Source: a virus
Virus record (IMG/VR): IMGVR_UViG_3300033149_003588
Span: 1 to 64,000 of that record
DNA: 64,000 bases
Reading direction: 5' to 3' (one strand)
Part shown: in pieces, positions 1,404-64,000 of the stretch
How positions within the stretch are numbered: the stretch's first letter is position 1
Layout of the letters: each line of letters starts with the position of its first letter
The notes under the pieces: model-generated
Databases searched by the model: none
What the model saw: the letters and a program-made list of their open reading frames with translations, nothing else
Told to the model about the DNA's origin: nothing
Made by a program: the position numbers and the translations under genes

Positions 1404-1461
1404 TTCTCCTCCTTAGATTTAGGTTGATTGATTCTCTAGTCCTCCCGCCGATTACATTCAT
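1396..1461 (-). CDS. Leader mini-ORF, 21 codons, coupled to the DUF4116 gene at 1403
   Basis: ATG at 1461 overlaps the TGA stop of the 1458-2069 gene (ATGA), with AAGGAGG upstream. The peptide starts MNVIGGRTRES and ends LNLRRRNG. Its TGA falls inside the first codons of the gene starting at 1403. A chain of overlaps thus links upstream gene, leader and downstream gene, consistent with translational coupling. Confidence 0.55.
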   Translation of the reverse strand: MNVIGGRTRESINLNLRRRNG

Positions 1462-2069
1462 GTGACCTCCTTATTATTTTCTGGTAAAAATATACTAGAG
1501 TCTATATATCGGATAGCACGTTTATCTTCTTTTACTGCTTCTACGCAAATCTCAGGGGTCTGCCTTTCTATATAACGAAGAATATTTCCATTTTGCCTCA
1601 CTGCCTCTAAACAAATTTCAGGAGTTTGTTTTTCTACAAATCGGAGAGCATCACTATTCTGTTTTACCGCTGCTAAACAAATCTCAGAAGTTTGCTTCTT
1701 TACATACTGGAGAGTATCCCCATTCTGTTTTACAGCTTCTAAACAGATTTCTGGGGTCTGTTCTTTTACATAACAGAGAGCACGTGCATTCTGTTTTACT
1801 GCTGCTAGACAAATCTCAGGAGTCTGTTCTCTCACATATGGAAGAGCAAGACCGTTCTGTTTTACTGCCACTAGACAAATCTCGGGAATTTGCTTCTTTA
1901 TATACTGGAGAGCACGCCCATCCTGTTTTACTGCTGCTAGAGCTATGCTCCCCCTCAGGTTTTTCATGTGATTACGCTCAGCCCCTGTATATTCCAGGAA
2001 CTCCTTGAGAGTAATCCCCTTTCCAGTCTGTAACTTGTGATCGATTTGCACTTTTTTAATGTTATCCAT
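1458..2069 (-). CDS. DUF4116-like repeat protein, short form, 203 aa
   Basis: Conserved head (MDNIKKVQIDHKL) followed by six 22-residue QTPEIC-type repeats, about half the number in the flanking paralogues. The head is nearly identical to that of the gene at 2140-3219, which implies recent tandem duplication with gain or loss of repeats. The start at 2069 has a GGAGGAG site and is entered by the mini-ORF at 2062-2127. The last codons (KEVT-stop) are encoded over the ribosome site of the next leader. Function unknown. Confidence 0.85.
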   Translation of the reverse strand: MDNIKKVQIDHKLQTGKGITLKEFLEYTGAERNHMKNLRGSIALAAVKQDGRALQYIKKQIPEICLVAVKQNGLALPYVREQTPEICLAAVKQNARALCYVKEQTPEICLEAVKQNGDTLQYVKKQTSEICLAAVKQNSDALRFVEKQTPEICLEAVRQNGNILRYIERQTPEICVEAVKEDKRAIRYIDSSIFLPENNKEVT

Positions 2070-2127
2070 TTCTCCTCCTTAGATTAAGGTTAATTGATTC
2101 TCTAGTTCTCCCATTGATTACGTTCAT
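2062..2127 (-). CDS. Leader mini-ORF, 21 codons, coupled to the DUF4116 gene at 2069
   Basis: AAGGAGGCCAT precedes ATG at 2127. The peptide starts MNVINGRTRES and ends LNLRRRNG, differing from the 1396-1461 leader at one residue. Its TAA lies inside the first codons of the downstream gene. Conservation of peptide and overlap across three copies argues against chance, although part of it simply reflects duplicated DNA. Confidence 0.55.
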   Translation of the reverse strand: MNVINGRTRESINLNLRRRNG

Positions 2128-2139
2128 ATGGCCTCCTTA

Positions 2140-3219
2140 TTATTTTCTGGTAAATACCCCAGGATCTACATATTGAATAGCACGTTTATTTCCTTTTACT
2201 GCTTCTATACAGATCTCAGGGGTTTGCTCCTTTATGTAACGAAGAGTATTCCCATTTCGCCTCACTGCTTCTAAACAAATCTCGGGAGTTTGTTCATCTA
2301 CAAATTGGAGAGCATCACTATTCTCTTTTACTGCTGCTAGACAAATCTCAGGAGTCTGTTCTATTACATATTGAAGAGCAAGACCATATTCTTTCACTGC
2401 TGCTAGACAAATCTCAGGAGTCTGTTCTATTACATATTGAAGAGCATAGCCATCTCTTTTCACTGCTTCTAAGCAAATCTCGGGAGTTTGTTCTTTTACA
2501 AACTGAAGGGTATATCCATTTCGTTTTACAGCTTCTAGACAAATCTCGGGAGTCTGCTCTCTTACAAATTGGAGAATAAGCTCTTCTTCATTGACCATCT
2601 CTGCACAAATTTGTCTTACCGCTGCCAGGCAAATTTCTGGGGTTTGTTCCTCTACATACTGAAGAGAACGCACATCTTGTTTTACTGCTTCTAAACAGAT
2701 CTCTGGGGTCTGTTCCTTTACATACCGGAGAATACGCCCATTCTGTTTCACTGCTTCCATGCAGATCTCGGGAGTCTGCTTTTTTACAAATTGGAGAGCA
2801 TGACTATTCTGTTTCACTGCTTCCATGCAGATCTCGGGAGTCTGCTTTTTTACAAATTGGAGAACTAGTCCATCCTGCCTTACAGCTTCTAAACAAATCT
2901 CAGGAGTTTGCTTTTTTGCATAGGGGAGACGGATCGCCCTTTGTTTCACCGCTTCCATACAAATCTCGGGGGTTTGTTCCTTGACATAACCAAGAGCACG
3001 ACTATCCTTTTTCACCGCCTCCATGCAAATCTCAGGAGTCTGCTCCCTTACATACTGAAGGTCAAGACCATTTTGTTCTACTGCCTTTAGAGCCCTGTCT
3101 CCCTTTAGATTTCTTATCTGATTACGTTTAGTTCCTGTATATTCCAGGAACTCCTTGAGAGTAATCCCCTTTCCAGTTTGTAATTTGTGATCGATCTGCA
3201 CCTTTTTGATGTTATCCAT
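2140..3219 (-). CDS. DUF4116-like repeat protein, long form, 359 aa
   Basis: Longest complete paralogue, with a head of about 45 residues and thirteen QTPEIC-type repeats. One repeat near residue 200 has an eight-residue insertion (contains MVNEEEL) that breaks the 22-residue period. The start at 3219 has GGAGGAG at good distance. Unlike the three other copies there is no leader mini-ORF, because the upstream gene ends only about 29 bp away. It is the first-transcribed member of the family and may be the founder. Function is unknown; the regular one-Cys-per-repeat ladder is notable. Confidence 0.85.
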   Translation of the reverse strand: MDNIKKVQIDHKLQTGKGITLKEFLEYTGTKRNQIRNLKGDRALKAVEQNGLDLQYVREQTPEICMEAVKKDSRALGYVKEQTPEICMEAVKQRAIRLPYAKKQTPEICLEAVRQDGLVLQFVKKQTPEICMEAVKQNSHALQFVKKQTPEICMEAVKQNGRILRYVKEQTPEICLEAVKQDVRSLQYVEEQTPEICLAAVRQICAEMVNEEELILQFVREQTPEICLEAVKRNGYTLQFVKEQTPEICLEAVKRDGYALQYVIEQTPEICLAAVKEYGLALQYVIEQTPEICLAAVKENSDALQFVDEQTPEICLEAVRRNGNTLRYIKEQTPEICIEAVKGNKRAIQYVDPGVFTRK

Positions 3220-38354: not shown

Positions 38355-41300
38355 CTAGTCACCACTAATCGGTAAATTAGTTGTTGTTATATGTAACTCC
38401 GTAGCACCGAGTTGATTGCCTCGTTCATCTTTTAATATGATTTCTGCGGAGCCAGTAATATTTATATCATTTGTATATTGGGCAACAAGATTTTTCACTG
38501 CATTGGCTAATTCGATATTAGATTCAGATTGTTCAGATATTGAATGAATTAATTCAGGCATATCATTCAATTTATTTAATGCTTCTTCCCTGCCTATACC
38601 AATAGCAGGAGGAAGTTGCTTACGTATAGTCTGAGTGGCCTCATCAATTACCTTGCTCAATTTTTCAGCGGCCTCCCCAAATTTAATTCCTTCAGTAGCT
38701 TTTTTAAAAGCCTCACTAGTAAAAATATCTTGAAATACACCTATTGTTTTTTCTAAGCCTGGTATTACGTCGGCAAAGTGTTTTGCCGCCAAATCTAATG
38801 AATCTGCTACCGAGGCGCCTTGTGCAAACGCACCAGTTAATAGAAACGTTGCATCATGCATTTTATCTATGACGGGCTTGGCAACATCTTCATATACTGC
38901 GCGTAAATTAACTAGATATTGTGCTTGCTTGCCCAACTTAGTAGTACCAGTAATTTCAAGTATATCGGCAACTGCAAGCATGTCTCTTTTAATGTCATCC
39001 ATCGGCATCCCAAGCTCAAATCCGCGCTCATAAACCTCAGATAATGCAGACAATAATGATTGACCACGCTCAATTATATGTTCACCTAACATGGGGTCAC
39101 CAAATATATTTTTCTCCATTACCTCTCTGGCTCGATCCCCCATGGTAGCAAACTCTTTAATGGGAGTACCCATTATAGCTTCAAATGCTTGCCTTTTTTC
39201 TTCTAATTGCATTATTAATGTTTCATATTCATAGAATGGATCTTCAAAACCCGGGAACAACTTACCAGTAATATATCCCTTTGCCTTTCTAACAAGCCCT
39301 ATAATCTCGGCCATCGTATCATGCGTCTTAATAACAACAGTAAGTACTGCATTATAGGCATTAGCAAGTGTTTTCGCAGCCTCTGTTCGCTTTTTAGTTA
39401 TCTCGGCAAAGCTTTCTTCTGCCGCTCTGATTTCAGCTAATTTTTCTGATTCTTCATCTAAAAGTCGCCCACGTTCTGCTTCATGTTTTAAAACGTCATT
39501 CTGCCTATCAGCTATCGTTGCCACTTGCTTACCATATTTAACATAGCCCTGAACTATTTCTGCAACACTAATACCTATCTTCCCATGAGCTGTACCAACA
39601 TTTTGAAGCGCCTGTCCATGCTCTTCGTATATGCGTTTAAGTTCTCGTCCCATTGCTAAATTAGCTTTTTGCCTTCTGGTAATACCCATCCCTATCTGGC
39701 CCACCTCATGACTCGTATATGCAATCATAGCCTCATTATAATTAAAAAGCTTGGGATCTATGCCTCTTAAATTTTTATTCATACTTTCCCAAATGTCAGC
39801 CATCATTTTGGCATCGCGCTCAGAAAAATCTATGCCAAATTCAACACGACCCCAATCCTTGACAGCCCTGTGAAATTCATCATATGTAGCTTGAGCATCT
39901 TTTTCATCTATCTCTACTTCAGCATCAATCTCTAATTGTCTCTCTCTAATCCTCGATAAATCTTTGTGTAATTTTTCTATGGTCTCTGGTATACCCTTTA
40001 TCTCGTCCTTATAGGTTTTAAGAGTTATAATAGCACCAATAACCTCATCAACCCCAAGTGCTGCCATCCAATCTGATATTTTGGCACCGCTAAGCGCAGT
40101 TTGAATATTTTTTATCTCTGACGTAATGCTTCGCCAAAACTTCACCATTTGTGCTCTTTGCTTTGGAAGATCCAAATAAGTAAATAATGCAATTAGCGTC
40201 CGGGCTATTGTTTCTTGTTGTCTAAGGGACGATATCCCGGGCACATCATGAAGACTAACAAGTGCCCTTTGTAATATATTAATCTGGTTAACAGCTGTTC
40301 CAGTTACTATCCGGGGTTCAACCTCCATCATCTGCTCATACTCACGTTGAAATCCCTGAAATTGCATCGTAAACCTGCTAAATCCTAGCTTAAACTTTTC
40401 TGCGATATTGAAGCCACCCTGAAAAATCCCTCCCCTCTCTTGGCGTATTAATATATCATACATATCATCCATAGACTTGCCCAATACCTTAGAAGCAGCA
40501 ACTACTTTAGAAAATTCTTCGGGAGTCATCCCCATTAGTATTCTTCGTCTTTCTAAAGGAATAAGCTTCGTATCGCCTATCGTCTTCTTTAATACGGCTG
40601 CTTCTTCTTCGGCATTTTTAAATCCTCGCTTAACTGCAGCAAGGTCTTCTTTCATCTTTTTAATAGTGTCAGATTCTTTCTTGGAATAGTAACTCCATAT
40701 ACCAAAGGCAATGCGCAATGCAGCCATAAATATAACCATCTTGCCTAAAGACCATAATATAGCATTAAATGCTTTCACTACGCCCCAGGCACCAGTTGCA
40801 AGAATACCTAATGTACGTTTGAAATATTCCATGCCTTTACCCTTGGCAACATGGATCATCATTTGATCAACTTCTTGCCAGGCACTTACTATATTAGATA
40901 TCGGTTGCAAAAATTCCTTAGCAGCTGCTCTCATCTCCTGCATCGGTTTAATAGATTTTTGAGTAGCAACTCTAAGTTCTAACATTTTGTTTCTTACACC
41001 TTCAGCTGCCCTCCGAATATCCTCTTGGGCCTTGACAGGGTCATCAGCTGTTCTCTGTGCCTCTATCGCCTTATCATAGTCATCTATGGCTTCTGCCAAT
41101 GCTTTATAACCAACCTTGAATTCCGGACTAAGTTCACCTATAGCCTTAAATGCCGTATCAGTTACCATGGCACGTATATTACTTATAGTATCCTCAATCT
41201 TTATGAACCCTTTGGTATCTATACCCTCCCCAAGTCTGGTTATATATTTACCCATTAATTGATAATTAGTAGACGCACTAGTTATATTTTTAATAATATT

Positions 41301-43454
41301 ATCTAGAAACCCTCGCAAATGCGCAGACATGTCACTAACGCGCATCCCCATCTTAGTAAATATATCATTAATACTTTCAGCCTCAGTTTTTATAGATTTT
41401 ACATAATCCCTGTATTCTTTCGTTCCCTTCGTCGGCATGGGCTTAGATAATAATTCTTGTATTTTTTTAGTATGCTCCATTGCCTCATCTAAACCCTCTG
41501 GCATCATATCAAGTCTCTCATACATAGAACCAAATAATCTACTTAATACTTCCGGAGCACCCTCAGCACCTAAAACCTTGCCAAATATACCACCGGCAGC
41601 TGTAATCTTATCTTGTAAAGCAGTAATCTCTTTCATGTAGTCCTGGGGGGTACCACCCATAAATGCTGCTATCTGTTCTTTATTAACTGGCATAAACCTG
41701 CCGGTAAGTGTCATACCCAATTGAGATCTAAGTTTTTTACCCCTTGCAAAATTAATGATACCCTGCCATCCTCCTACAAAGCCACTCTTAATACCCTTAG
41801 CAACACCTCCAGCAATTTCTCTAGTGAGCCCCCATGTCACACGATTAACAAAATCACTATATAAATCGGGACCCAAAAGTCTAGACATCTTTGTACCTTC
41901 ACGGAATAACCTAGACTCACCTAATGGTCTGGGTTTTCTTTTAAATATGGTATCCCAGAATCTGGGCATCTCACTTACTTCGGCCATCATACCACGTATA
42001 GCAGGTTCGGCAGATCTAATGTACTCAGCACCCATATGCTCCATACCAATACCACCAGCTATCTTGGCAATTCTGCTTAATGTTGTCTTATCAATTTTCC
42101 CCTTAAATCCCTTCTTAGCAACATCATACATGGACCTTCTATAATTCATTAGTGCATCATAGGTCTCAGCTTCTGCAGATATCTCAAGTTGTTGTTCCAA
42201 GAACGCCCCAATAGCAGCACCCCTGCCACCAACAGTTGGTCCGCCCCGACCAGCACCAGTAAGAAAACCACGTCCTAGCCCCGCAAGTGTCGGTGACATT
42301 CTACCAAGACCAGACAATGCAATCTTAAGCTTATCAGTAGCAGCAGTCCATTTTTCTACACCAAATACAGCAGTCCCCATATAATTAGTTAAACGAGCCA
42401 TAAATGCCAAAAATCCCACAAGCATAACACCCTTCAAAAGCATTGTAAATCCCTTTAACGGCGAAATTAATAATCCAAGAGCAATTACAATACTAAACAA
42501 TATACTCTGTAGTTTAACAAGCCATTTTATCACTAATTGCATCATAGGAGACGAAACGATTTCGTATAAAAGTTCCCATAATTTAGATAAATTATTATAT
42601 AAATCCTGGAATCCTGGAGCAGCTGCTGCACCTATGGACTGGATTATTTTTTCACGAATACGACTAAATCTTTCCCATCCAAGTAGATTCTCTTCCAACA
42701 ACATAGATTGTATGCCTTGATATGATAATCCTTGTTTAACCATCTCATTAAATACCGCTTGTTCTTTGGCAGTATTATCTAATTCCCTAGCGGTCTTCCC
42801 AAGCCTTCGTGCCGCAGAATTAAGTACCTGATCTAATCTAAAGTTTACACCGATATTATCTAATATATTAGGATTTAACTGACGGAATCCACGTGACACT
42901 AATTGTATAGCATCATTAAAATCATATCCCATAACTCTGCTACCATCTTTGACTTGTTTAATAAATGTTTCTATCTGTTCAGTAGACAATGATGTACCAA
43001 GCAATCTCATAGTACCCTGCATTAAATCCATCTTCTTGGTAGTAGCGTCAACATTGCGCTCGATCATCGATAGAATGCTAGACACATTTCTACCAGTAGT
43101 CATCGATATATGTTCTATCGATTTTTGCAATACCATCATTTTGCGTGCTCTGCTTTCAGCATAAGCAAAAAAACCGCCCAGAACTCCCTGTAATGTTAGT
43201 ATTTTTCTTTGTAAACGACGTATAGGCCTGATAGTAAATCTTGTAAGTAGTCGATCGAATGATCGGATATCTTGCTTTAAATCATTAGATACACTTCCAA
43301 ATATTTGTCCTAGTTTATGAGCATGTCGCCTGGCATTTTTCTCGTTGCGTAGCATAGCACCACGAGAGGCTATTTCAAGTTCCTCAGCGTAATGTTGCAT
43401 AGCTTCTATACCCTCAGGATATATCGATCCTTCAAATATTTCTCTGCCTGGCAT
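38355..43454 (-). CDS. Tape measure protein, 1699 aa
   Basis: By far the longest gene and almost wholly helical with coiled-coil stretches. Hydrophobic segments occur near residues 310-350 (SILFSIVIALGLLIS, MLLKGVMLVGFLAFM) and about 890-915 (MVIFMAALRIAFGIW), as in tape measures that insert into the host membrane. Tape measure length scales with tail length; 1699 residues imply a long tail, on the order of 250 nm by the usual 1.5 Angstrom per residue. ATG 43454 follows GAGGGAAGG and lies inside the end of the chaperone gene. It acts as ruler and DNA channel factor. Confidence 0.92.
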   Translation of the reverse strand: MPGREIFEGSIYPEGIEAMQHYAEELEIASRGAMLRNEKNARRHAHKLGQIFGSVSNDLKQDIRSFDRLLTRFTIRPIRRLQRKILTLQGVLGGFFAYAESRARKMMVLQKSIEHISMTTGRNVSSILSMIERNVDATTKKMDLMQGTMRLLGTSLSTEQIETFIKQVKDGSRVMGYDFNDAIQLVSRGFRQLNPNILDNIGVNFRLDQVLNSAARRLGKTARELDNTAKEQAVFNEMVKQGLSYQGIQSMLLEENLLGWERFSRIREKIIQSIGAAAAPGFQDLYNNLSKLWELLYEIVSSPMMQLVIKWLVKLQSILFSIVIALGLLISPLKGFTMLLKGVMLVGFLAFMARLTNYMGTAVFGVEKWTAATDKLKIALSGLGRMSPTLAGLGRGFLTGAGRGGPTVGGRGAAIGAFLEQQLEISAEAETYDALMNYRRSMYDVAKKGFKGKIDKTTLSRIAKIAGGIGMEHMGAEYIRSAEPAIRGMMAEVSEMPRFWDTIFKRKPRPLGESRLFREGTKMSRLLGPDLYSDFVNRVTWGLTREIAGGVAKGIKSGFVGGWQGIINFARGKKLRSQLGMTLTGRFMPVNKEQIAAFMGGTPQDYMKEITALQDKITAAGGIFGKVLGAEGAPEVLSRLFGSMYERLDMMPEGLDEAMEHTKKIQELLSKPMPTKGTKEYRDYVKSIKTEAESINDIFTKMGMRVSDMSAHLRGFLDNIIKNITSASTNYQLMGKYITRLGEGIDTKGFIKIEDTISNIRAMVTDTAFKAIGELSPEFKVGYKALAEAIDDYDKAIEAQRTADDPVKAQEDIRRAAEGVRNKMLELRVATQKSIKPMQEMRAAAKEFLQPISNIVSAWQEVDQMMIHVAKGKGMEYFKRTLGILATGAWGVVKAFNAILWSLGKMVIFMAALRIAFGIWSYYSKKESDTIKKMKEDLAAVKRGFKNAEEEAAVLKKTIGDTKLIPLERRRILMGMTPEEFSKVVAASKVLGKSMDDMYDILIRQERGGIFQGGFNIAEKFKLGFSRFTMQFQGFQREYEQMMEVEPRIVTGTAVNQINILQRALVSLHDVPGISSLRQQETIARTLIALFTYLDLPKQRAQMVKFWRSITSEIKNIQTALSGAKISDWMAALGVDEVIGAIITLKTYKDEIKGIPETIEKLHKDLSRIRERQLEIDAEVEIDEKDAQATYDEFHRAVKDWGRVEFGIDFSERDAKMMADIWESMNKNLRGIDPKLFNYNEAMIAYTSHEVGQIGMGITRRQKANLAMGRELKRIYEEHGQALQNVGTAHGKIGISVAEIVQGYVKYGKQVATIADRQNDVLKHEAERGRLLDEESEKLAEIRAAEESFAEITKKRTEAAKTLANAYNAVLTVVIKTHDTMAEIIGLVRKAKGYITGKLFPGFEDPFYEYETLIMQLEEKRQAFEAIMGTPIKEFATMGDRAREVMEKNIFGDPMLGEHIIERGQSLLSALSEVYERGFELGMPMDDIKRDMLAVADILEITGTTKLGKQAQYLVNLRAVYEDVAKPVIDKMHDATFLLTGAFAQGASVADSLDLAAKHFADVIPGLEKTIGVFQDIFTSEAFKKATEGIKFGEAAEKLSKVIDEATQTIRKQLPPAIGIGREEALNKLNDMPELIHSISEQSESNIELANAVKNLVAQYTNDINITGSAEIILKDERGNQLGATELHITTTNLPISGD

Positions 43455-48232: not shown

Positions 48233-48421
48233 CTATTTGCCCAAGAATTTGGCAGAAATTTGTTTTAATCTTTTTAAATACTTCCTCCATGATTGAGGCA
48301 CGCCACCCATTAATGGATATCTAGAAGGCAACACCTTGGTATTTATACCCACCGAGTGAGGCATTTCAACAGTACTCATTAGCTCTTGAATATGTTCTTT
48401 ATTCACAATAGGTATAATCAT
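48233..48421 (-). CDS. CTS-tagged small head protein, 62 aa
   Basis: Begins MIIPIVNKEHIQE, a longer version of the shared tag with the likely cut after IQE. The remainder ends in basic residues (RKYLKRLKQISAKFLGK). Overlaps the next CTS gene by 4 bp (ATGA), so co-translated. Probably targeted to the prohead interior and trimmed by the phage protease, then packaged or ejected. Specific role unknown. Confidence 0.65.
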   Translation of the reverse strand: MIIPIVNKEHIQELMSTVEMPHSVGINTKVLPSRYPLMGGVPQSWRKYLKRLKQISAKFLGK

Positions 48422-48747
48422 TTTATATTTCTAATCTGTTTGAGTATATTTTTACCAAGCTTTTTATATGTCTTGCCAAGATTAATACGATGAGCTATCT
48501 TCTGGGTTAATATAGGGATCCTGTTACCCAAATATTTCTGGTGAAACATGGGTTCACTAATACTTTTCCCACTATAAAATCTGCCCAGCATAGTACCTAT
48601 ATATTTCTCTCTATTAGTCCATCTTTTAAGTGGAGATTTTATCACTGCAAGCGCACCAGCCACAGGATCACCACCACCCATATATGTAGCATATCTCCTC
48701 AACGAGCCTGGCAGCCTTTCCTGTATACTCATAATTGGAATAATCAT
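48418..48747 (-). CDS. CTS-tagged basic head protein, 109 aa
   Basis: Begins MIIPIMSIQE with a predicted cut before RLPG. The mature part is rich in Arg, Lys and Gly (RRYATYMGGGDP, KTYKKLGKNILKQIRNIK), suiting DNA neutralisation inside the capsid or ejection. The start at 48747 lies 24 bp downstream of the tmRNA-like RNA. Unknown function beyond the tag. Confidence 0.7.
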   Translation of the reverse strand: MIIPIMSIQERLPGSLRRYATYMGGGDPVAGALAVIKSPLKRWTNREKYIGTMLGRFYSGKSISEPMFHQKYLGNRIPILTQKIAHRINLGKTYKKLGKNILKQIRNIK

Positions 48748-48770: not shown

Positions 48771-48847
48771 TGGAGGTGTGGGCATCGAAGCCCAGTCCAT
48801 GAATTACCTATATAAGGTCTTAATTCATGTCGAAACCTTTCACCCCC
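48771..48847 (-). ncRNA. Minimal tmRNA-like RNA: tRNA-like domain without messenger part, 77 nt
   Basis: Lies wholly within the 111-bp gap 48748-48858. Coding strand order: 7-bp acceptor stem (GGGGGUG/CACCUCC) with G3.U70 wobble and discriminator A, the alanyl-tRNA synthetase identity set; AAA then GGUUUCGAC, the hallmark D-loop of tmRNA; an 8-bp helix (CAUGAAUU/AAUUCAUG) plus 4 bp capped by a small loop in place of the tag ORF and pseudoknots; GGAC; then a T-arm of 5 bp (UGGGC/GCCCA) with loop UUCGAU. CCA is not encoded. Loop is 6 nt, one short of the usual 7. Chance occurrence of all these together is unlikely. It is not an att-type ssrA fragment, since both ends of the tRNA-like domain are present. 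Confidence 0.75.
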
Positions 48848-48858
48848 ATACTTGTATA

Positions 48859-49671
48859 CTATATTGCACTGTACCACCATTTACTATAAGTAGTAACAAG
48901 ATCATCCTCTGTCTCGTGACTACCAATTTTATATTGCGTACTATCTATCCCCGTATCTCTTTCCACATCATATTGTACACTTGTAAAGTCCGCCACCGCT
49001 GATTCTTCTATCTTTCGCCAATATACTACACCATCTATAATCTCACGATACATACGCTGCTGCTCTCTTTCCCAATGAGAATCGAATACCCTTATGGCAT
49101 CCATAATTTTTGTACTTAAATTTCCTGCGCCAATATTTGATCCAGGTTGACTTATACTAGGAATTAATAACCACTGATTTAATATTATCTGATAACAATG
49201 TCTCACGGCTCTATTGGTCAACCAACTTATATCCCACTTATTTAATTCAGATAAATCTGATGGAATTTCTTTAACATCAGCTTCTGAGTGCATAAGGGCA
49301 TCCCCGATTGCAGCACTTGATAATGAATCTGCCAAAGGGCCCAACTGTCTTATAACTCTACCTAATAAACTATTACCCGTGTCCTCTTCTACTATAAATA
49401 TTCTTTCAAATGTGGTATCACCAGCGGTCCATATATCTTTGTATATACCAGCAGTGTTGATTGTTATAGTAATAGTATATTGACCAATTATGACCTCAGT
49501 AATGTCAGAAACATTAAGTGATATATCTGTATATTCTACCCAACCAGTTTCACCATCTAAATGATATATAGCAACATCAGTAAATCCAGGGTTATACAGT
49601 TCACCATCTTGATTATATGTAACCAAAGTTAGAGTTATAGGCTCGTCTATCGTATTATTATAACGACTCAC
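48859..49671 (-). CDS. Putative head completion/neck protein, 270 aa
   Basis: Start MSRYNNTIDEPITLTLVTYN at 49671. The N-terminal 95 residues are an Ig-like beta domain (ITITINTAGIYKDIWTAGD), followed by helical and mixed parts (LSELNKWDISWLTNRAVRH). Position in the head-tail junction segment suggests a connector. The Ig-like domain could act as an external decoration. Not matched to a family by eye. Confidence 0.5.
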   Translation of the reverse strand: MSRYNNTIDEPITLTLVTYNQDGELYNPGFTDVAIYHLDGETGWVEYTDISLNVSDITEVIIGQYTITITINTAGIYKDIWTAGDTTFERIFIVEEDTGNSLLGRVIRQLGPLADSLSSAAIGDALMHSEADVKEIPSDLSELNKWDISWLTNRAVRHCYQIILNQWLLIPSISQPGSNIGAGNLSTKIMDAIRVFDSHWEREQQRMYREIIDGVVYWRKIEESAVADFTSVQYDVERDTGIDSTQYKIGSHETEDDLVTTYSKWWYSAI

Positions 49672-49704: not shown

Positions 49705-49971
49705 TTATAAACGTGGTCTTTTTGCCTTTAAGTATATCTGTCCTATATTTTTATATATTTTCCCAGCATCTGTGCCCACATTTCGAGCTGCCATATAACC
49801 ATAGAATTTCTTCTTCAATAATTTGGCTACATGTGGATTCTTGATATTGCCAAATGACGGAAGTATGAGGGCGTATTTACCACCATACGACGGGCTAGAT
49901 ATTAATTTCCTAAACATACCCATAACAGCAGACGGTGGAGTTTCTTGAATATGTATAATAGGTATCAACAC
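49705..49971 (-). CDS. CTS-tagged basic head protein, 88 aa
   Basis: Begins MLIPIIHIQE, cut predicted before TPPS. The mature part is Lys-rich (LLKKKFYGYMAARNVG, IYLKAKRPRL), fully basic, no membrane segment. The start codon overlaps the stop of the neighbouring CTS gene by one base. A packaged DNA-associated protein is likely. Confidence 0.68.
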   Translation of the reverse strand: MLIPIIHIQETPPSAVMGMFRKLISSPSYGGKYALILPSFGNIKNPHVAKLLKKKFYGYMAARNVGTDAGKIYKNIGQIYLKAKRPRL

Positions 49972-50198
49972 TACGACTTCCTCTTCTTACCTAGACCCTT
50001 TCCTTCGCCCTCACCAAAACCGGGACCCTCTTCACACGGCTCAGTGTTCTTATTTCTTCTCAGACCACCAGGCATACCTTTACCCTTGCCTGCTCCGGCC
50101 TTCTGTCCATAAATTACTGATTTTCCTCTACCACGTCTGAATAATCTGGCAAATAGATCACCAATTTTCGTTTCCTGAATTATAATCGGTATTACCAT
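49971..50198 (-). CDS. CTS-tagged Gly/Arg-rich head protein, 75 aa
   Basis: Start MVIPIIIQE at 50198 (a second ATG one codon earlier lies nearer the GGAGGA site). Cut predicted before TKIG. The mature part is a low-complexity Gly, Lys and Arg run (RRGRGKSVIYGQKAGAGKGK and onward), suited to DNA compaction. Its start overlaps the stop of the lytic transglycosylase, so translation is coupled. Confidence 0.65.
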   Translation of the reverse strand: MVIPIIIQETKIGDLFARLFRRGRGKSVIYGQKAGAGKGKGMPGGLRRNKNTEPCEEGPGFGEGEGKGLGKKRKS

Positions 50199-50827
50199 CA
50201 TTCCTCCATCTTTCTATATGATTTTTTAAACTTGCGTTTTCTTATCCATTTTTTATAGGCTGCTTTAGCTTTATTTATATACCCGTGCGGTACTACATCA
50301 TCCTTATATGTGCCAGAATTATAACCATCAAATATATCATCTATACTTTTAGGATTATACTTAAGCACCCTGTTATTCAAAAACTTAATCACATAAATAA
50401 TGGCAATCTCATCATTATCTAGTTCCTCTGGTGTGCCACGAAATCCTAATTCCCAGGCAACAACAAATAATATTTGCCATGATGAATAGCTTTTTGCAGC
50501 GGCTCTTCCGAACCTCTTCACTAAATCTCGAACTTGTTTAGATTTCTTATAATAATACCCACCTTTATAATATGATTTTTCAAAAAGTGGCTTTGTATTT
50601 TTACCATAATTGCTTTCGACGCATGCTATAGCCTTCAATAATATCTCTGGATCAACATTGATTCTTTTCAAATTTCTTAGATGTGGGGCATATTCCTCAA
50701 TTAGCAACCCCAGTCTATTCTGCCTGGTTGTTGCTGCTACCCACCGTCGCATTTTTATAGTTTCAAGCATTTTATTTAAATTCCAGTGCAATATAATATA
50801 TCTCCATGTTTCGACAATAACATTCAA
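50198..50827 (-). CDS. Lytic transglycosylase (SLT/goose-type lysozyme fold)
   Basis: 209 aa (start uncertain: ATG 50827, 50770 or later). IACVESNYGKN carries the catalytic Glu of the lysozyme-like SLT fold. SYSSWQILFVVAWELGF corresponds to the S-x-G-x-x-Q-I block, and DGYNSGTYKDD plus the Y-x-x-K helix end complete the pattern. It would cut peptidoglycan between MurNAc and GlcNAc. Sitting inside the CTS cluster rather than beside lysis genes, it is probably a virion-carried enzyme used during DNA entry. It has no CTS tag of its own. Confidence 0.72.
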   Translation of the reverse strand: MNVIVETWRYIILHWNLNKMLETIKMRRWVAATTRQNRLGLLIEEYAPHLRNLKRINVDPEILLKAIACVESNYGKNTKPLFEKSYYKGGYYYKKSKQVRDLVKRFGRAAAKSYSSWQILFVVAWELGFRGTPEELDNDEIAIIYVIKFLNNRVLKYNPKSIDDIFDGYNSGTYKDDVVPHGYINKAKAAYKKWIRKRKFKKSYRKMEE

Positions 50828-54150: not shown

Positions 54151-54435
54151 CTATTCTTTCTTGAATGGCCCCAATCCCAGTCTCTTCTGAATGGCTTCTG
54201 CCTTTTTATATACATCAGGACGATTATGTTGACGAGCTCTCGTTTTAGCAGCGCTCAACATTCTACTAGATATATTCCCAGCCTTATCACGATAAGGATA
54301 TTTTCTATCAGATGGTGATAAAAACGAACTAGCAGGCATTTCTCGTCTCACAGCTGGACGATGAAGCCATTTCTTCCCTGATAACCTGGCTCTCGTAATT
54401 TTTTGCTCTTGTATATTCACAATAGGTATTAACAT
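54151..54435 (-). CDS. CTS-tagged basic head protein, 94 aa
   Basis: Begins MLIPIVNIQE, the textbook form of the tag, cut predicted before QKIT. The remainder is Arg/Lys-rich (RARLSGKKWLHRPAVRRE, KTRARQHNRPDVYKKAEAIQ) with no hydrophobic segment. DNA-associated internal head protein likely. Confidence 0.7.
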   Translation of the reverse strand: MLIPIVNIQEQKITRARLSGKKWLHRPAVRREMPASSFLSPSDRKYPYRDKAGNISSRMLSAAKTRARQHNRPDVYKKAEAIQKRLGLGPFKKE

Positions 54436-54812: not shown

Positions 54813-55163
54813 TTATATTATTTTAAATACTTTATTTTTTCTTTGTTTTTTTCTTAATTTTTCTATATTTTTTATAGCTCCCACACTGTTTGTGGGAATA
54901 GCAGCAATATCATGTGTGTCCACTCCCCTAATCTTTACATCTATAATATGTCTCTTGGGAATGCGACCCAATAAATAACCTGCCGGACCAGCCCCAAGAA
55001 CACCAAGTCCTAATACCTTTTTATATTTACGAGTAGTTTTCCCAGAAGCACCCAATGATTTTAATATAGCATGCCCCATTTTGCCAGGAATACTGCCAAT
55101 CCTATTCATAGCTTTTATCTTATTAAATATACTTTCTCTTATGTTGATAACCGGTATAAACAT
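54813..55163 (-). CDS. CTS-tagged head protein with Gly-rich hydrophobic segment, 116 aa
   Basis: Begins MFIPVINIRE; Arg instead of Gln in the cut motif, cut predicted before SIFN. It contains LGLGVLGAGPAGYLLGRI (about residues 50-67) followed by basic residues and a KIEKLRKKQ-like end (NIEKLRKKQRKNKVFKII). Closely resembles the 55197 protein at its C-terminus (KVFKII). Confidence 0.68.
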   Translation of the reverse strand: MFIPVINIRESIFNKIKAMNRIGSIPGKMGHAILKSLGASGKTTRKYKKVLGLGVLGAGPAGYLLGRIPKRHIIDVKIRGVDTHDIAAIPTNSVGAIKNIEKLRKKQRKNKVFKII

Positions 55164-55196: not shown

Positions 55197-55424
55197 TTAT
55201 ATTATCTTAAATACTTTCCGTAGTAAATTAAGTTTAGTAGCATTAACACCAAATGGTTTGGTACTTCCCATTATAGCTCGTGATAATCTTTTACGTATAT
55301 TTAATCTCTTTGCTGCCTGAGCTAACTGCGCCATTACAAGCGGATCATGAACCCTCGGGATAGATTTAGCATAGGTGCCCCCAACCTCTTGTATAATCTT
55401 CGCATTTGCTATAGGTATCAACAC
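55197..55424 (-). CDS. CTS-tagged basic head protein, 75 aa
   Basis: Begins MLIPIANAKIIQE, an extended tag with cut before VGGT. The mature part is basic (RLNIRKRLSRAIMG) and ends LLRKVFKII, shared with the neighbouring 116-aa protein (KVFKII). Stop-start overlaps with the downstream paralogues show a co-translated string. Confidence 0.66.
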   Translation of the reverse strand: MLIPIANAKIIQEVGGTYAKSIPRVHDPLVMAQLAQAAKRLNIRKRLSRAIMGSTKPFGVNATKLNLLRKVFKII

Positions 55425-55768
55425 TATTTCTTTTTCTTTCCTAATTTTTCTCTTATCTTGGATTCAATTTTATATTTCTCAAGCCCACGCGCGTATTTTG
55501 TTTTAAGGTATGGCTGCAAAAGAGCAGAAAGCCCACCCAACGCGCCAGCACCAAAAGTAGCACCCATAAGACCCCTGGTAATTGCCTTGCTACCTTTGGG
55601 ACCGAAAAAACCCATTAGACCTCCCACACCACCCAATACGGCACCCCTCTTAAGCCCCGTATATGCTGCAGTAGGTCTTGTACGTATATATGCTAAACGA
55701 CGTTTATATTTTTGAATTTGTTTATCAGGATCATCCGCTTCCTGTATATTTACAATTGGTATAATCAT
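55424..55768 (-). CDS. CTS-tagged head protein with Gly-rich hydrophobic segment, 114 aa
   Basis: Begins MIIPIVNIQE (cut before ADDP). The mature part is basic at first (YKRRLAYIRTR), then a long Gly-rich hydrophobic stretch (LGGVGGLMGFFG, then GLMGATFGAGALGGLSALL, about residues 45-84), then KYKIESKIREKLGKKKK. This is the most membrane-like of the family and a strong candidate ejection/pore protein. Confidence 0.7.
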   Translation of the reverse strand: MIIPIVNIQEADDPDKQIQKYKRRLAYIRTRPTAAYTGLKRGAVLGGVGGLMGFFGPKGSKAITRGLMGATFGAGALGGLSALLQPYLKTKYARGLEKYKIESKIREKLGKKKK

Positions 55769-56295
55769 TATACGCTCTTCTTTTTCTTTTTATTTTTTCT
55801 AGACAACGCACCTAAACCATAACCAACACCATAACCACTGGCCGCATACCCCGCATAAGGTATAATAAAACCTAGCATATCATGGGGGTGTTTAGATCGC
55901 CACATCCAATTTTTAATTATTCGGGTACCCCTGCCACCATGAACCCTCGTTACATATTTTTTAATAGCGCTAGCACCACTCTCTTGTACTTTGCCCACCT
56001 TCATCGGTATTTTATGCTTACGACGTGTAGGAGACACCTTACGACGAGTCTTACGCGCTTTACCACCATGATACAAACCACTGAGACCCGCCATAGCAGC
56101 AGTATAATGCATTAGCGAACGTGAAAATCGGTCTTGATATGGATAACCCAATATCCACAAACTACGACGTGGATTAATAGATTTTGTATGTCCTATACTA
56201 AAATGCCCAAATAGATCAGGTTTCATAGCAATAGCACGTTTCCCAAATTTATAAAATCTACCAGCCTCGCTTATATGCAGAATAGGTATAACCAT
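55768..56295 (-). CDS. CTS-tagged head protein, longest of family, 175 aa
   Basis: Begins MVIPILHISE (Ser in the cut motif, cut before AGRF). Basic throughout (RRSLWILGYPYQDRFSR, KTRRKVSPTRRKHK), with a C-terminal Gly/Tyr-rich hydrophobic segment (FIIPYAGYAASGYGVGYGLG) and a Lys tail (KNKKKKKS). A rho-independent terminator precedes it at 56320-56348, so this gene and the CTS string after it may be a separate unit. Confidence 0.7.
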   Translation of the reverse strand: MVIPILHISEAGRFYKFGKRAIAMKPDLFGHFSIGHTKSINPRRSLWILGYPYQDRFSRSLMHYTAAMAGLSGLYHGGKARKTRRKVSPTRRKHKIPMKVGKVQESGASAIKKYVTRVHGGRGTRIIKNWMWRSKHPHDMLGFIIPYAGYAASGYGVGYGLGALSRKNKKKKKSV

Positions 56296-56994: not shown

Positions 56995-58089
56995 TTAAGA
57001 ATTATTAGATCCCTTATACCAGGGGCGATAATCAAGAATTATCTTACCCCAGATGTGACGAATTTTATAACGAATTTCATCGCGATTAAAAGCATTACCA
57101 CTAGTGCTATTCTCAACGTACATCTCCGGTTCCCTATGTCCTCTCAAGAAACCAACTTCGAGAGTATCATATTGTTTGGGATCTGCTATAAGATACCACT
57201 CATCAGAACCCAACCAATTGGAAATTCTAATTTCCAATTTACCACCGATTTGGAAAAAGTTTGGCTCGTTCGGAGTATGAGTTCTAGCAACACCATCGGT
57301 ATGATACATGTGCGTGCCAGGATCAATACCAGCAGCTGTAATGGTACCATCGGTAATCGGAACAGTTCTTGCATTGAGAACTTTTAGGACCCTAACTTCC
57401 TGTTCAGGACCAATAAGTAGATACCTCGGTGTCATACCAATAACATTCTCATTACGCAGGTCTTTCTGTGTTCTTATGGCTTTATAACCATCAGCTAGCT
57501 TAGCCTCAGTAATAACATTAACACCAGTATCTACATTACCATGATCTGACGCAAAAAGTGTCGCACCATCATAAATAGTGGGATTGCCAGTAATATAGGT
57601 TATGATGTCTTTATCAAGACTACGCTTGGCGGCCCTGCCCATCTTGATAGGTTGCTGCCTCAAAACATGTAGGTCGTCATTTATGATACATTCCCATGAG
57701 ATACCAAAAATGCGCCCGTACTTCTGAACATTATACTTAATCTCTTCTTCGGCGAGTGCACTATCTCTATATTCACCGTGCTCAATAACTGCCTCTAGAA
57801 GATCAGCTTCACTTACACGTTCCCTGTATTGATCTTTGAAATCATTAACATCATTAATTGCCGAAGCAAGATCCTGCCATGTGCTAGGGAGTTCCTTGTA
57901 TTCTTTGAGTAGTTGTTTAAACATCGTATTCCTAAGAATATAAGGAAAATCAGCAGAACTTGCAGCTTCTTGCAATAACAGATTGTAATGACCGCGTTCG
58001 ATCTCATCAAGAGCTATCTCTTGAATAGGAGTCAAATGGCCTTCATTTTCAGCCCTGAATTGCGTCGCCCATGTTTTAGGATCGTACAT
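56995..58089 (-). CDS. Major capsid protein (HK97 fold)
   Basis: 364 aa. The first 41 residues are charged and end HYNLLLQE before AASSADFPYILRN, matching the prohead-protease motif, so they are a removable delta domain; a further TPIQEIAL site lies within. The mature part has the features of Mu gpT-like/phage capsids: FKQLLKEYKELPSTWQDLAS, YGRIFGISWECIINDDL and NIAGRAAKRSLDKDI-type helices (KMGRAAKRSLDKDIITYI), DGATLFASDHGN and RYLLIGPEQE. Preceded by the DUF2190 gene and a hairpin. Expected to be the most abundant virion protein. Confidence 0.92.
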   Translation of the reverse strand: MYDPKTWATQFRAENEGHLTPIQEIALDEIERGHYNLLLQEAASSADFPYILRNTMFKQLLKEYKELPSTWQDLASAINDVNDFKDQYRERVSEADLLEAVIEHGEYRDSALAEEEIKYNVQKYGRIFGISWECIINDDLHVLRQQPIKMGRAAKRSLDKDIITYITGNPTIYDGATLFASDHGNVDTGVNVITEAKLADGYKAIRTQKDLRNENVIGMTPRYLLIGPEQEVRVLKVLNARTVPITDGTITAAGIDPGTHMYHTDGVARTHTPNEPNFFQIGGKLEIRISNWLGSDEWYLIADPKQYDTLEVGFLRGHREPEMYVENSTSGNAFNRDEIRYKIRHIWGKIILDYRPWYKGSNNS

Positions 58090-60826: not shown

Positions 60827-63800
60827 TTACATCTTTGTTATTATGTGTTTAATCATCTCTAACTCCTCTTTTAATGCATTTAATACATCTTTGCTAAGAG
60901 GATATTCAGGATTTTGTAGAGTGTCGATTATTCTATTACCCCTATTGATAAGTAGTGCTTTTTTCAACTCCTCCTTACTAATCTTTCTTTTCCACCCACC
61001 GACACGCTTATACATAATACCATATCCCTTTCCAGCATCATCCAGCCATGCCCTAGATATCTGTTCGCTAGATAATTTCTTGGGTTTACCACGATATACC
61101 CTATCATGTGCATCAACATTAATATTCAATTTATCAATTAATTCTGGGTTATCACGAACCATGTCTATCAATGTATTAGTGGTGGCCCTATCATTTAATG
61201 TAATATCCACTATATCATGAGCTGCAGTATGTATATCATTAGCATGAGGCATCCTACGTAATGCACCAAAATCGTATCCGCTCATAAATATAGTATCTAA
61301 TGGATCCCATGGATTATAATAAAATAACTGCCATATAGTAAATTTTTCACCAGATTCAGTAGCTATGGGGGTAAGACCAATACGCCTAGCGTCAACAAAC
61401 GCATCACTCTGAAATACATAAGAACCAATTCTATATGTATTTTCAGTATTTGGGCGTCCTATGGGAATAGCTAATCGCATTATAGATTTAAATTGGGATA
61501 TATCAATGGGCATACCAAGCTGTGTTTCTATATCATGTCTAGCTTGTAAAACACTTTTCAAAAATTCTTGTGCTACTATAGAATATTCACTACTAGCTTC
61601 CATAGAATTAAATGAAAACGAGTTAATAACACCACCCAGAAAATCAGCACGATCACCAACATTTTTAACAGTGCCAATCCAGGGCTGTGCACCATGTATT
61701 CTTAGTGATGCATCAAGTAACAATCTACTGGGCATGTCAAGATCTGGATCTACATCAATACGAGTAAAGGCATTATTAACATTGGTTTCTACCCTAAATT
61801 TTATCGGAGCGGTACCCATATTTATATCTGCAAGTGCCGTGGCATCATCTATCCCTGCTTCTGCTGGCATATAAAATATCCTGCCATTCTGATAACAATA
61901 TCCAATCCATTTATGCTCGGTTATACCAGGCTGAGCGCCAGGGGCCCATGCGGTACCCAATATTAACTCACGTAATACGGTTTTCTTGCCAGTTACTGGA
62001 CTAATCACACTAGTATATGGACCACGCCACGCAGTCATAGTGAGACGTCCAATAACCTCGCGCGCCCTAGGAGTCAGTTTGCTCTTTATAAAATCTTGCC
62101 TAACAGTATCAAGTTTTCTCCATTGCCTAAGAAATTCTAATACACCAGGAGAACCAGTATTTTTCAATATGTCAACTAGTGACATATTCCAAAACTCAAG
62201 ATTGTGATCACTAACAGATATGTGACCAATCTTTTCTATTAATTTAGCTATTGCGGCACTTATCTTTTCTATATTGTTAGATACCCTGTCAGCAATATGG
62301 GCCGACATAGTACTCGTAATTTTCCATCTTAAATAAGATAATTCCTTTCCACCCAATTCACTAAATGATGGCCATTTATCAACAGCCCCCTTTAGTGGCA
62401 CACCACTAGGGTTAAACCCACCATATATCATATCATATATTTCCTTATTAGTATATAAACCTGTATCTTTCAACTCTTGTACAACTTTACCTACGGCCTC
62501 GACACCATAAAATTCCACACCACTAGGATCAGTATATAAATACTTGTCAAACAAAGCGATATTAAACGCTTCACATATCTTATCTTGCTCGGCATTCAGA
62601 ACAGACTTAATATCAAGTCCCAAAGAATCAACGAGTTCGGTTATAACCGAGTCAGCTGCTATTATACGTCCATTCACTATGTTCCTCGCCATAAGATCTA
62701 TGGCCATACTAATATCGCCAGACTCATAAAACATTTTTAGCGCGTCTTCAATTTCCCGAAGAGTTAATTCCTTGTGCCTTTCCGCAAGCTCTTCGGCACT
62801 AAGCCCTTCGTCACGATGTTCCTTAAATAAAGTAAACAATCTATCATATATATGATCGTGTGAAATACTACCCAATAAAACACGTATATCAGATGTCACA
62901 CCCCCATCTACCAATGAAACAGTATTATCTACTGCAATCTTTTGAATAGTCCGGACAATATCTGTGTTACCCTTGCTAAAATTTATCGCTGCATCAATAG
63001 AATCTGGTCCATACACAATTCTAGATATAAGACTTCTATTATATTTATCTTTAAACTCAGACCATAATTCGTCCCCACGTTTAACCGGCATAGCCTCCTT
63101 CCACTCATATATCTTATCATGGACAACCCGTGGAGATAACCCATTAGTAAATACCCCTTCCATATATAGTACACCATAATTAGAATTAACATTAAATCTG
63201 CCCCCCAAATCATCAGGCGAGGTTACAGCTAATTCAAACAAAGACTGCTGATATTCCACCTCACCAGCACTTCCAATCTTATCCCGTATTCTTGATAACC
63301 TTTTTCTATCTATCTCGACAGTAGAACGATTAGCCATTACAGCAGTGGGGAGGAATATTGGTGTATAAGTACACCTACATCTTCTATGACGTGGTAGAAC
63401 TGGCATTATGTGCCACTTTTCTTGTGGATAAATCTTGCCAGCATCAGCCAGGCAAACCGGACAAGTCATATTATCCATTACAACAGTAATCATAATGCCT
63501 TGCAATAAATCAGCATTGTCATTCATAAGCTGCTTTACAGCCGTGTTCACATATACACGCGCAAAATCCTGATATACAGCATATCTCCCAACCATCTTAT
63601 CTTTGCCACTATATTGCCCCCTCAATATACCATATATATTATCTTCTAATCTATTAAAATTAGTACCAAGATAGGCCTCTGGATTATTCTTAACCCTCAT
63701 TTCTAAATCATCAAGATCTTTATACATATCTAATAATAAACGCCTATCATAGTGTGACAATGTTAATTTATTATCTTTAAACCCAATCTTACTATATATC

Positions 63801-64000
63801 CTCCTCATCGTGGCCATAGTCTTACGATTATCAACAGTTACACCGATATCAGAATACATGGTATTAACAAGAGCCGAATTAGAAACTATAGTATCATGTA
63901 TACTCTTATCAATCTCACTAGACAATATACTGTTCCCAACTATCGAATCTATAACTTCCAAACCCCAATCATGCCCAATCCTCCCAAGTAATTTTTTAAT
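60827..64000 (-). CDS. SPP1 gp7/Mu gpF-like minor head protein with large C-terminal extension, N-terminus cut by window edge
   Basis: The frame stays open past a TTG at 63961 to base 64000, so the true start is outside. Near residue 170, TCPVCLADAGKIYPQEKWH...PVLPRHRRCRC is the zinc-ligand block of the SPP1 gp7/gpF head-morphogenesis family. The remaining 850 residues are helical and mixed (WRGPYTSVISPVTGKKT and so on), much longer than typical family members (250-450), so this is a fused or extended protein. It may act in portal-proximal assembly and DNA entry. The portal gene should lie upstream, beyond the window. Confidence 0.75.
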   Translation of the reverse strand: MKKLLGRIGHDWGLEVIDSIVGNSILSSEIDKSIHDTIVSNSALVNTMYSDIGVTVDNRKTMATMRRIYSKIGFKDNKLTLSHYDRRLLLDMYKDLDDLEMRVKNNPEAYLGTNFNRLEDNIYGILRGQYSGKDKMVGRYAVYQDFARVYVNTAVKQLMNDNADLLQGIMITVVMDNMTCPVCLADAGKIYPQEKWHIMPVLPRHRRCRCTYTPIFLPTAVMANRSTVEIDRKRLSRIRDKIGSAGEVEYQQSLFELAVTSPDDLGGRFNVNSNYGVLYMEGVFTNGLSPRVVHDKIYEWKEAMPVKRGDELWSEFKDKYNRSLISRIVYGPDSIDAAINFSKGNTDIVRTIQKIAVDNTVSLVDGGVTSDIRVLLGSISHDHIYDRLFTLFKEHRDEGLSAEELAERHKELTLREIEDALKMFYESGDISMAIDLMARNIVNGRIIAADSVITELVDSLGLDIKSVLNAEQDKICEAFNIALFDKYLYTDPSGVEFYGVEAVGKVVQELKDTGLYTNKEIYDMIYGGFNPSGVPLKGAVDKWPSFSELGGKELSYLRWKITSTMSAHIADRVSNNIEKISAAIAKLIEKIGHISVSDHNLEFWNMSLVDILKNTGSPGVLEFLRQWRKLDTVRQDFIKSKLTPRAREVIGRLTMTAWRGPYTSVISPVTGKKTVLRELILGTAWAPGAQPGITEHKWIGYCYQNGRIFYMPAEAGIDDATALADINMGTAPIKFRVETNVNNAFTRIDVDPDLDMPSRLLLDASLRIHGAQPWIGTVKNVGDRADFLGGVINSFSFNSMEASSEYSIVAQEFLKSVLQARHDIETQLGMPIDISQFKSIMRLAIPIGRPNTENTYRIGSYVFQSDAFVDARRIGLTPIATESGEKFTIWQLFYYNPWDPLDTIFMSGYDFGALRRMPHANDIHTAAHDIVDITLNDRATTNTLIDMVRDNPELIDKLNINVDAHDRVYRGKPKKLSSEQISRAWLDDAGKGYGIMYKRVGGWKRKISKEELKKALLINRGNRIIDTLQNPEYPLSKDVLNALKEELEMIKHIITKM

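What the first reader, a model, noticed from the sequence alone, without database searches (positions are those of the whole stretch)
48771..48847. A 77-nt tmRNA-like RNA that keeps only the tRNA-like domain
In a phage intergenic gap the coding strand folds as a tmRNA tRNA-like domain: 7-bp acceptor with G3.U70 and discriminator A (alanine identity), AAAGGUUUCGAC, GGAC before the T-arm and a UUCGAU T-loop. The whole messenger-like region and pseudoknots are replaced by one capped helix (CAUGAAUU/AAUUCAUG plus ACCU/AGGU). I do not know of a natural tmRNA reduced this far. If charged with alanine it could occupy SmpB, EF-Tu or stalled ribosomes without providing a tag, acting as a decoy of trans-translation, or it could deliver alanine elsewhere. 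The T-loop is one base short and CCA is not encoded.
Basis: partly seen in the sequence, partly recalled or inferred. Interest (0 to 1): 0.93.

Follow-up and report, generated by a model that had tools for sequence, protein, structure and literature searches.

The report
Phage tag-less tmRNA, tRNA-like domain only
This phage carries a tiny RNA gene that copies only the tRNA-like end of the bacterial ribosome-rescue RNA (tmRNA), probably to jam the host's rescue-and-tag system; one phage RNA of this kind was already reported, but the searches here show that many phages carry one.

Summary
Window 48771-48847 (minus strand), in a 111-bp gap between two phage structural-region genes, is a real tRNA-like-domain-only tmRNA. 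Rfam tmRNA scores it 55.2 bits (cut-off 47). A covariance model built from phage relatives without it scores it 67.8 bits, against 24.7 for the best tRNA. It has G3.U70, discriminator A, GGUUUCGAC, GGAC and a T-arm; the tag, pseudoknots and encoded CCA are absent. The T-loop is one base short, unlike nearly all relatives.

The novelty claim fails. Mycobacteriophage DS6A has a TLD-only tmRNA, such an RNA was shown to inhibit host tmRNA, and jakobid mitochondria and some plastids also lack the tag. The decoy reading is therefore the best supported, by precedent; it is untested for this phage.

New here: the DS6A-like form is widespread. At least 111 viral contigs (74 distinct sequences) and several unannotated cultured actinophages carry one, with strong covariation, invariant alanine identity and recurrent placement between the prohead protease and major capsid genes or before a DnaB-like helicase. 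In bacterial genomes only 2 of 117 pattern hits were real. No close relative of this phage was found. The host, transcript and biochemistry are unknown.

The parts
48771..48847 (-). TLD-only tmRNA gene, 77 nt (5' end at 48847)
   Evidence: RF00023 55.2 bits; family model R1 67.8 bits; fold z -4.27
48841..48847 (-). acceptor stem 5' strand GGGGGUG (G1, G2, G3 of G3.U70)
   Evidence: G1-C72, G2-C71 and G3.U70 in 74/74 class sequences
48829..48837 (-). stemless D-loop GGUUUCGAC (SmpB-contact region in known tmRNAs)
   Evidence: contact nucleotides U17, G19 from PMC8363625, numbering matched by hand
48822..48828 (-). helix 2 (H2) 5' strand AUGAAUU, pairs with 48799-48805 (plus C19-G50)
   Evidence: class covariation at this helix
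48806..48821 (-). cap that replaces the messenger region and pseudoknots: unpaired AAG then hairpin ACCU-UAUAU-AGGU
   Evidence: class keeps unpaired A8 A9 and C12 C13 in the cap
48799..48805 (-). helix 2 (H2) 3' strand AAUUCAU
48795..48798 (-). GGAC linker before the T-arm (its A corresponds to E. coli A334, an SmpB contact)
   Evidence: PMC8363625, numbering matched by hand
48779..48794 (-). T-arm UGGGC-UUCGAU-GCCCA, loop 6 nt instead of 7
   Evidence: 72 of 74 class members have 7 nt, one has 8, window alone has 6
48771..48778 (-). acceptor 3' strand CACCUCC (U70) and discriminator A73; CCA not encoded
48859..49671 (-). upstream gene, 270 aa, no family match; stop 11 nt before the RNA
48418..48747 (-). 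downstream gene, 109 aa, MIIPIMSIQE leader, no family match; start 23 nt after the RNA

Best explanation
It is a phage-encoded tmRNA stripped to its tRNA-like domain (DS6A type). Proposed mechanism: it is co-transcribed with the phage's late/structural genes and cut out like a tRNA (RNase P at the 5' end, host CCA addition at the 3' end). Host AlaRS can charge it with alanine through G3.U70/A73. Through its D-loop, GGAC and T-arm it binds host SmpB, and with EF-Tu it can enter stalled ribosomes. Having no resume codon, tag or stop, it cannot tag or release, so it competes with host tmRNA for SmpB and stalled ribosomes and damps trans-translation during infection. Shown here: gene, fold, family membership, identity elements, conservation across phages. 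Shown elsewhere for a similar RNA: inhibition of tmRNA in E. coli. Inferred: expression, processing, charging, SmpB binding and benefit for this phage.
For: RF00023 match over its cut-off and a family model that excluded it. In 74 distinct class sequences the search pattern left acceptor pairs, T-stem 3' side and cap free: G3.U70 and discriminator A in 74/74, H2 positions 1-6 paired 88-99% against 41-48% when partners are re-dealt; in 26 aligned relatives 97.3% of pair cells are paired, covariation score 0.639 against 0.126 shuffled and at most 0.121 when slid. The class is virus-borne: 111 of 120 pattern hits in viral contigs are real, 2 of 117 in bacterial genomes. No SmpB gene in the phage, so host SmpB must be the partner. 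No hidden mini-tag: none in the window; 27/74 against 20.7 shuffled (range 7-31) in the class. Precedent: PMC4131195, PMC11915505. Structures: TLD fragments bind SmpB, and with SmpB and EF-Tu bind the ribosome (PMC3022190, PMC8363625).
Against: No transcript or biochemistry for this phage. The T-loop lacks one base, and D-loop/T-loop contacts are needed for SmpB binding (PMC3968760), so this copy could be weak or altered. Covariation is for the class: no close relative of this phage was found. Mao et al. 2009 itself could not be read here. That a phage gains from blocking trans-translation is not demonstrated.
Confidence: 0.6

Rival explanations
1. Active tag-less rescue, as suggested for mitochondrial tmRNAs without a tag frame: the charged RNA with SmpB adds one alanine to the stalled chain and helps clear the ribosome without marking the protein for proteolysis, protecting phage proteins rather than blocking rescue.
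For: Alanine identity is invariant in the class, more than a mere SmpB sponge should need, since the inhibiting RNA worked whether or not chargeable (PMC4131195). Mitochondrial tag-less tmRNAs persist together with SmpB and are thought to help (PMC11915505).
Against: There is no stop codon or resume codon to release the chain; a similar RNA inhibited rather than replaced tmRNA in E. coli.
Confidence: 0.17
2. Cis-acting element: the tRNA-like fold is an RNase P site that cuts the polycistronic late mRNA and separates or stabilises the neighbouring messages (for instance before the capsid gene); the released RNA has little role of its own.
For: It lies in a short gap between co-directional genes, and relatives sit repeatedly about 115 nt upstream of the major capsid gene or shortly before a DnaB-like helicase gene.
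Against: A plain tRNA-like fold would do. The strict G3.U70, A73, GGUUUCGAC and GGAC are tmRNA-specific (D-loop and GGAC were required by the search pattern; G3.U70 and A73 were not). Other members lie in tRNA clusters or unrelated contexts.
Confidence: 0.12
3. A decaying passenger: a captured host tmRNA gene that lost its middle and is on the way out in this phage.
For: The T-loop is one base short, and some cultured relatives (Riptide, Alone3) look partly degraded.
Against: All stems of the window copy are fully paired, it keeps the class cap signature, and the class is maintained across many phages with compensatory changes.
Confidence: 0.07

Closest known systems
Mycobacterium phage DS6A tmRNA (TLD only; The tmRNA Website; Mao et al. 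2009; PMC4131195, PMC11915505)
   Same: Phage-borne tmRNA consisting of little more than the tRNA-like domain, no tag frame; a similar RNA inhibits host tmRNA in E. coli
   Different: DS6A's sequence is not in the collections here, so no direct comparison was possible. This copy is in a 37% GC, 145-kb phage with no recognisable close relative and has a 6-nt T-loop
Unannotated TLD-only genes of Streptomyces phages LuckySocke, pSt2308, BRock and of Pontimonas phage phiPsal1
   Same: Same architecture by model R1 (80-93 bits) and RF00023: 7-bp acceptor, G3.U70, GGAC, H2 plus capped hairpin
   Different: 7-nt T-loop, GC-rich stems; in tRNA clusters (Streptomyces phages) or between prohead protease and capsid gene (phiPsal1)
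Mitochondrial tmRNAs of jakobids (Jacob et al. 2004; Rfam RF02544) and ~65-bp plastid tmRNAs of Mallomonadaceae
   Same: tmRNA without a tag reading frame (PMC11915505)
   Different: Organellar; the mitochondrial ones are maintained alongside SmpB and are usually permuted
Full-length bacterial tmRNA (RF00023)
   Same: TLD sequence, alanine identity, H2 start
   Different: No messenger-like region, tag, stop codon or pseudoknots; 77 nt instead of 230-400

Membership tests
tmRNA (RF00023), tRNA-like domain | covariance score above the curated cut-off | tested here: met
   55.2 bits against 47
tmRNA (RF00023), tRNA-like domain | G3.U70 and discriminator A (alanine identity) | tested here: met
   also 74/74 in the class
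full tmRNA | messenger-like region with tag reading frame and stop | tested here: not met
   30-nt cap in place of the messenger region; no GCN...stop in the cap
full tmRNA | pseudoknots PK1-PK4 | tested here: not met
   absent; region deleted in the RF00023 alignment
TLD-only phage tmRNA (DS6A type) | phage-borne, little more than the TLD, no tag frame | tested here: met
TLD-only phage tmRNA (DS6A type) | sequence homology to the DS6A RNA itself | not tested
   DS6A record not found in the collections
TLD-only phage tmRNA (DS6A type) | inhibits host tmRNA when expressed | not testable with these tools
   reported for a similar RNA only (PMC4131195)
TLD-only phage tmRNA class defined here (model R1) | 7-nt T-loop | tested here: not met
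   6 nt; 72 of 74 have 7. A near-universal trait of the class, not a defining one: one other member has 8
tRNA | cloverleaf with D-stem and anticodon arm | tested here: not met
   ARAGORN finds no tRNA; RF00005 does not reach its cut-off; no D-stem in the fold
two-piece (permuted) tmRNA | permuted order of the two TLD halves | tested here: not met
   RF04321 only 13.2 bits against 47; halves are in standard order

The most novel reading that the evidence does not exclude
TLD-only tmRNAs are a common, independently maintained phage weapon against host trans-translation, placed in head-gene or replication operons so that the decoy rises with phage gene expression and keeps phage proteins or ribosomes out of the tagging pathway; this phage carries a divergent version with a shortened T-loop that may have altered SmpB or EF-Tu affinity.
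Probability: 0.45. Interest if true: 0.8.

Novelty: new member of a known kind. Interest (0 to 1): 0.55.

Why it matters
A single phage RNA of this kind (DS6A) was reported, and the 2025 tmRNA database lists only 9 standard-form tag-less sequences in all. The census here turns that curiosity into a family with at least 74 distinct sequences, cultured members with laboratory hosts (Streptomyces), covariation and fixed gene neighbourhoods. If the decoy role holds, RNA-based suppression of ribosome rescue would be a widespread phage strategy, testable at once in cultured phages, and a natural model for a trans-translation inhibitor.

Tried and rejected
Exact-pattern searches for the window's own RNA in viral contigs: none; 6 hits for its D-loop/H2 start were not TLD genes. 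Relatives of the neighbouring gene, capsid protein and presumed terminase in viral contigs: none; capsid tblastn only 29-32% to known phages, presumed terminase none. Permuted tmRNA rejected (13.2 bits). Hidden mini-tag rejected. Attachment-site remnant rejected by reasoning: an att site would carry one end of tmRNA, not both halves joined by a 30-nt cap. Sequencing error cannot be excluded for the missing T-loop base. Promoter/terminator scan uninformative. First MAFFT alignment with the window (A2) misaligned acceptors of members with longer linkers; replaced by A3 and by a motif-anchored count. DS6A not held; Mao 2009 and Jacob 2004 not held.

Full report
What is there. Rfam's tmRNA model (RF00023) matches end to end at 55.2 bits, over its curated cut-off of 47, with the whole messenger region taken as one deletion. 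It is the only Rfam hit at gathering level in the window and the only tmRNA in the 144,798-base virus record. The fold is 4.3 standard deviations below shuffles. The RNA fills most of a 111-bp gap between two co-directional genes (48859-49671 and 48418-48747), 11 and 23 nt from them. The surroundings are a phage structural region on one strand: major capsid (56995-58089), minor head protein (60827-63961), tape measure (38355-43454). The phage record encodes no detectable SmpB and no tRNA that ARAGORN finds in the 144 kb scanned.

Is it a kind? A pattern that fixes only GGNUUCGAC, an 18-48 nt gap and GGACNNGGNUUCGA, leaving acceptor, cap and T-stem partner free, was scanned over viral contigs. 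The same scan of 84,980 bacterial and archaeal genomes also stopped at its limit (117 hits); eight pass the pairing filter and only two of those are real TLD genes, both on Acidimicrobiales MAG contigs. Both scans were cut off, so these are proportions, not totals. Taking the failing hits as a yardstick for chance (9 against 115), TLD-only genes are several hundred times more frequent in viral than in cellular sequence. Cultured phages have them unannotated: Streptomyces phages LuckySocke, pSt2308 and BRock, with divergent copies in Alone3 and Riptide, and Pontimonas phage phiPsal1. One also sits on a phage-like Pseudonocardia plasmid. The named hosts are all Actinomycetota; the window's host is unknown.

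Covariation. Across 74 distinct sequences, anchored on the invariant motifs without alignment, H2 positions 1 to 6 pair in 88-99% of sequences against 41-48% when partners are re-dealt, with all Watson-Crick types used. On 26 aligned relatives without the window, 97.3% of 546 pair cells are paired; the covariation score is 0.639 against 0.126 shuffled and at most 0.121 with slid partners. Acceptor and T-stem pairing was a filter in selecting the sequences, so the independent evidence is H2 and the cap hairpin. G1-C72, G2-C71, G3.U70 and discriminator A occur in 74 of 74 (two pattern hits that failed these were set aside as false or damaged). The cap keeps two unpaired A's and a CC (A8 A9, C12 C13), which the window shares. 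Model R1, built without the window, scores the window 67.8 bits (E 1.6e-14) and the best tRNA 24.7. On RF00023 ten other loci with class members score 51.6 to 76 bits, so 55.2 is typical.

What is odd about this copy. The T-loop has 6 nt; of the other 73 distinct sequences, 72 have 7 and one has 8. From general tRNA structure (own knowledge), the missing base would be 59 or 60, which bulge out, so the U54-A58 pair and the contacts to the D-loop could survive; a sequencing indel is also possible. Lack of encoded CCA is normal for the class: most members do not encode it.

Context of relatives. Of the 74 sequences, 13 (phiPsal1 among them) lie about 115-300 nt upstream of an HK97-type major capsid gene, and in most of these the prohead protease gene lies just before; 10 lie about 100-450 nt upstream of a DnaB-like helicase gene. 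Others are in tRNA clusters. The window copy is in the structural region but about 8 kb past its capsid gene, in a phage whose capsid and presumed terminase proteins find no close relative.

Mechanism. Known biology (PMC3968760, PMC8363625, PMC3022190): the TLD carries the AlaRS, EF-Tu and SmpB sites; TLD fragments were crystallised with SmpB and on the ribosome; U17, G19 and A334 contact SmpB, and by hand alignment the window keeps U, G and A at these places. A tag-less RNA of this kind strongly inhibits tmRNA in E. coli, chargeable or not, perhaps through SmpB (PMC4131195; PMC11915505, citing Mao et al. 2009, which could not be read here). The most likely mechanism is therefore competition with host tmRNA for SmpB and stalled ribosomes. 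That charging identity is strictly kept although charging is not needed for inhibition is unexplained by pure titration; it may mean that ribosome occupation by Ala-TLD-SmpB, or a tag-less rescue, is part of the function.

Novelty. A natural TLD-only phage tmRNA is known (DS6A), as are tag-less organellar tmRNAs, so this is a new member of a known kind. What appears new is that the kind is widespread, structurally coherent and syntenic in phages. The literature library searched (9 searches) gave no report of this beyond DS6A and the 9 tag-less standard sequences of the 2025 database, but most subscription papers are not held.

Noticed in passing
L016, L004, L029, L039, L061, L072, L076, L087, L114, L123 and others; L005, L007, L018, L019, L024, L028, L034, L035, L046, L090: TLD-only genes in viral contigs sit repeatedly upstream of the HK97 major capsid gene (usually just after the prohead protease) or shortly upstream of a DnaB-like helicase gene. 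Why these two places is unexplained.
   Followed up: partly
cap of the TLD-only class, e.g. window 48806-48821: Beyond base pairing, the cap keeps unpaired A's on the 5' side and CC at the hairpin start in nearly all 30-nt members; no role is known.
   Followed up: partly
window 48418-48747, 49971-50201, 54151-54435, 54813-55163, 55424-55768, 55768-56295: A series of short, often basic proteins share an N-terminal leader of the form M-I-I-P-I-x-x-I-x-E, reminiscent of prohead-protease-cleaved capsid-targeting leaders of internal head proteins.
   Followed up: partly
L126:4931-8074 (genome 88931-92074): Phage anaerobic ribonucleotide reductase NrdD carrying an intein; with an NrdG-like gene next to it, it suggests an anaerobic host.
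   Followed up: no
L127:7635-8900 (genome 111635-112900): PurZ/PurA-like protein, 217 bits to PurZ, below the curated 300: possibly a 2-aminoadenine DNA pathway.
   Followed up: no
genome 64001-76702, minus strand (L125): A single open frame of over 4,200 codons next to the head genes.
   Followed up: no
window 477-3219 and genome 136436-142962: Many paralogous genes built of EQTPEICLEAVKQNG-type repeats near both ends of the record.
   Followed up: no
L091:5916-6012, minus strand: A Pistol ribozyme (50.7 bits) about 2 kb from a TLD-only tmRNA in another viral contig.
   Followed up: no
L255:7996-8074 (NZ_CP053567.1, Pseudonocardia plasmid with phage head genes): TLD-only tmRNA (82.6 bits), unannotated, on a phage-like plasmid.
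   Followed up: partly
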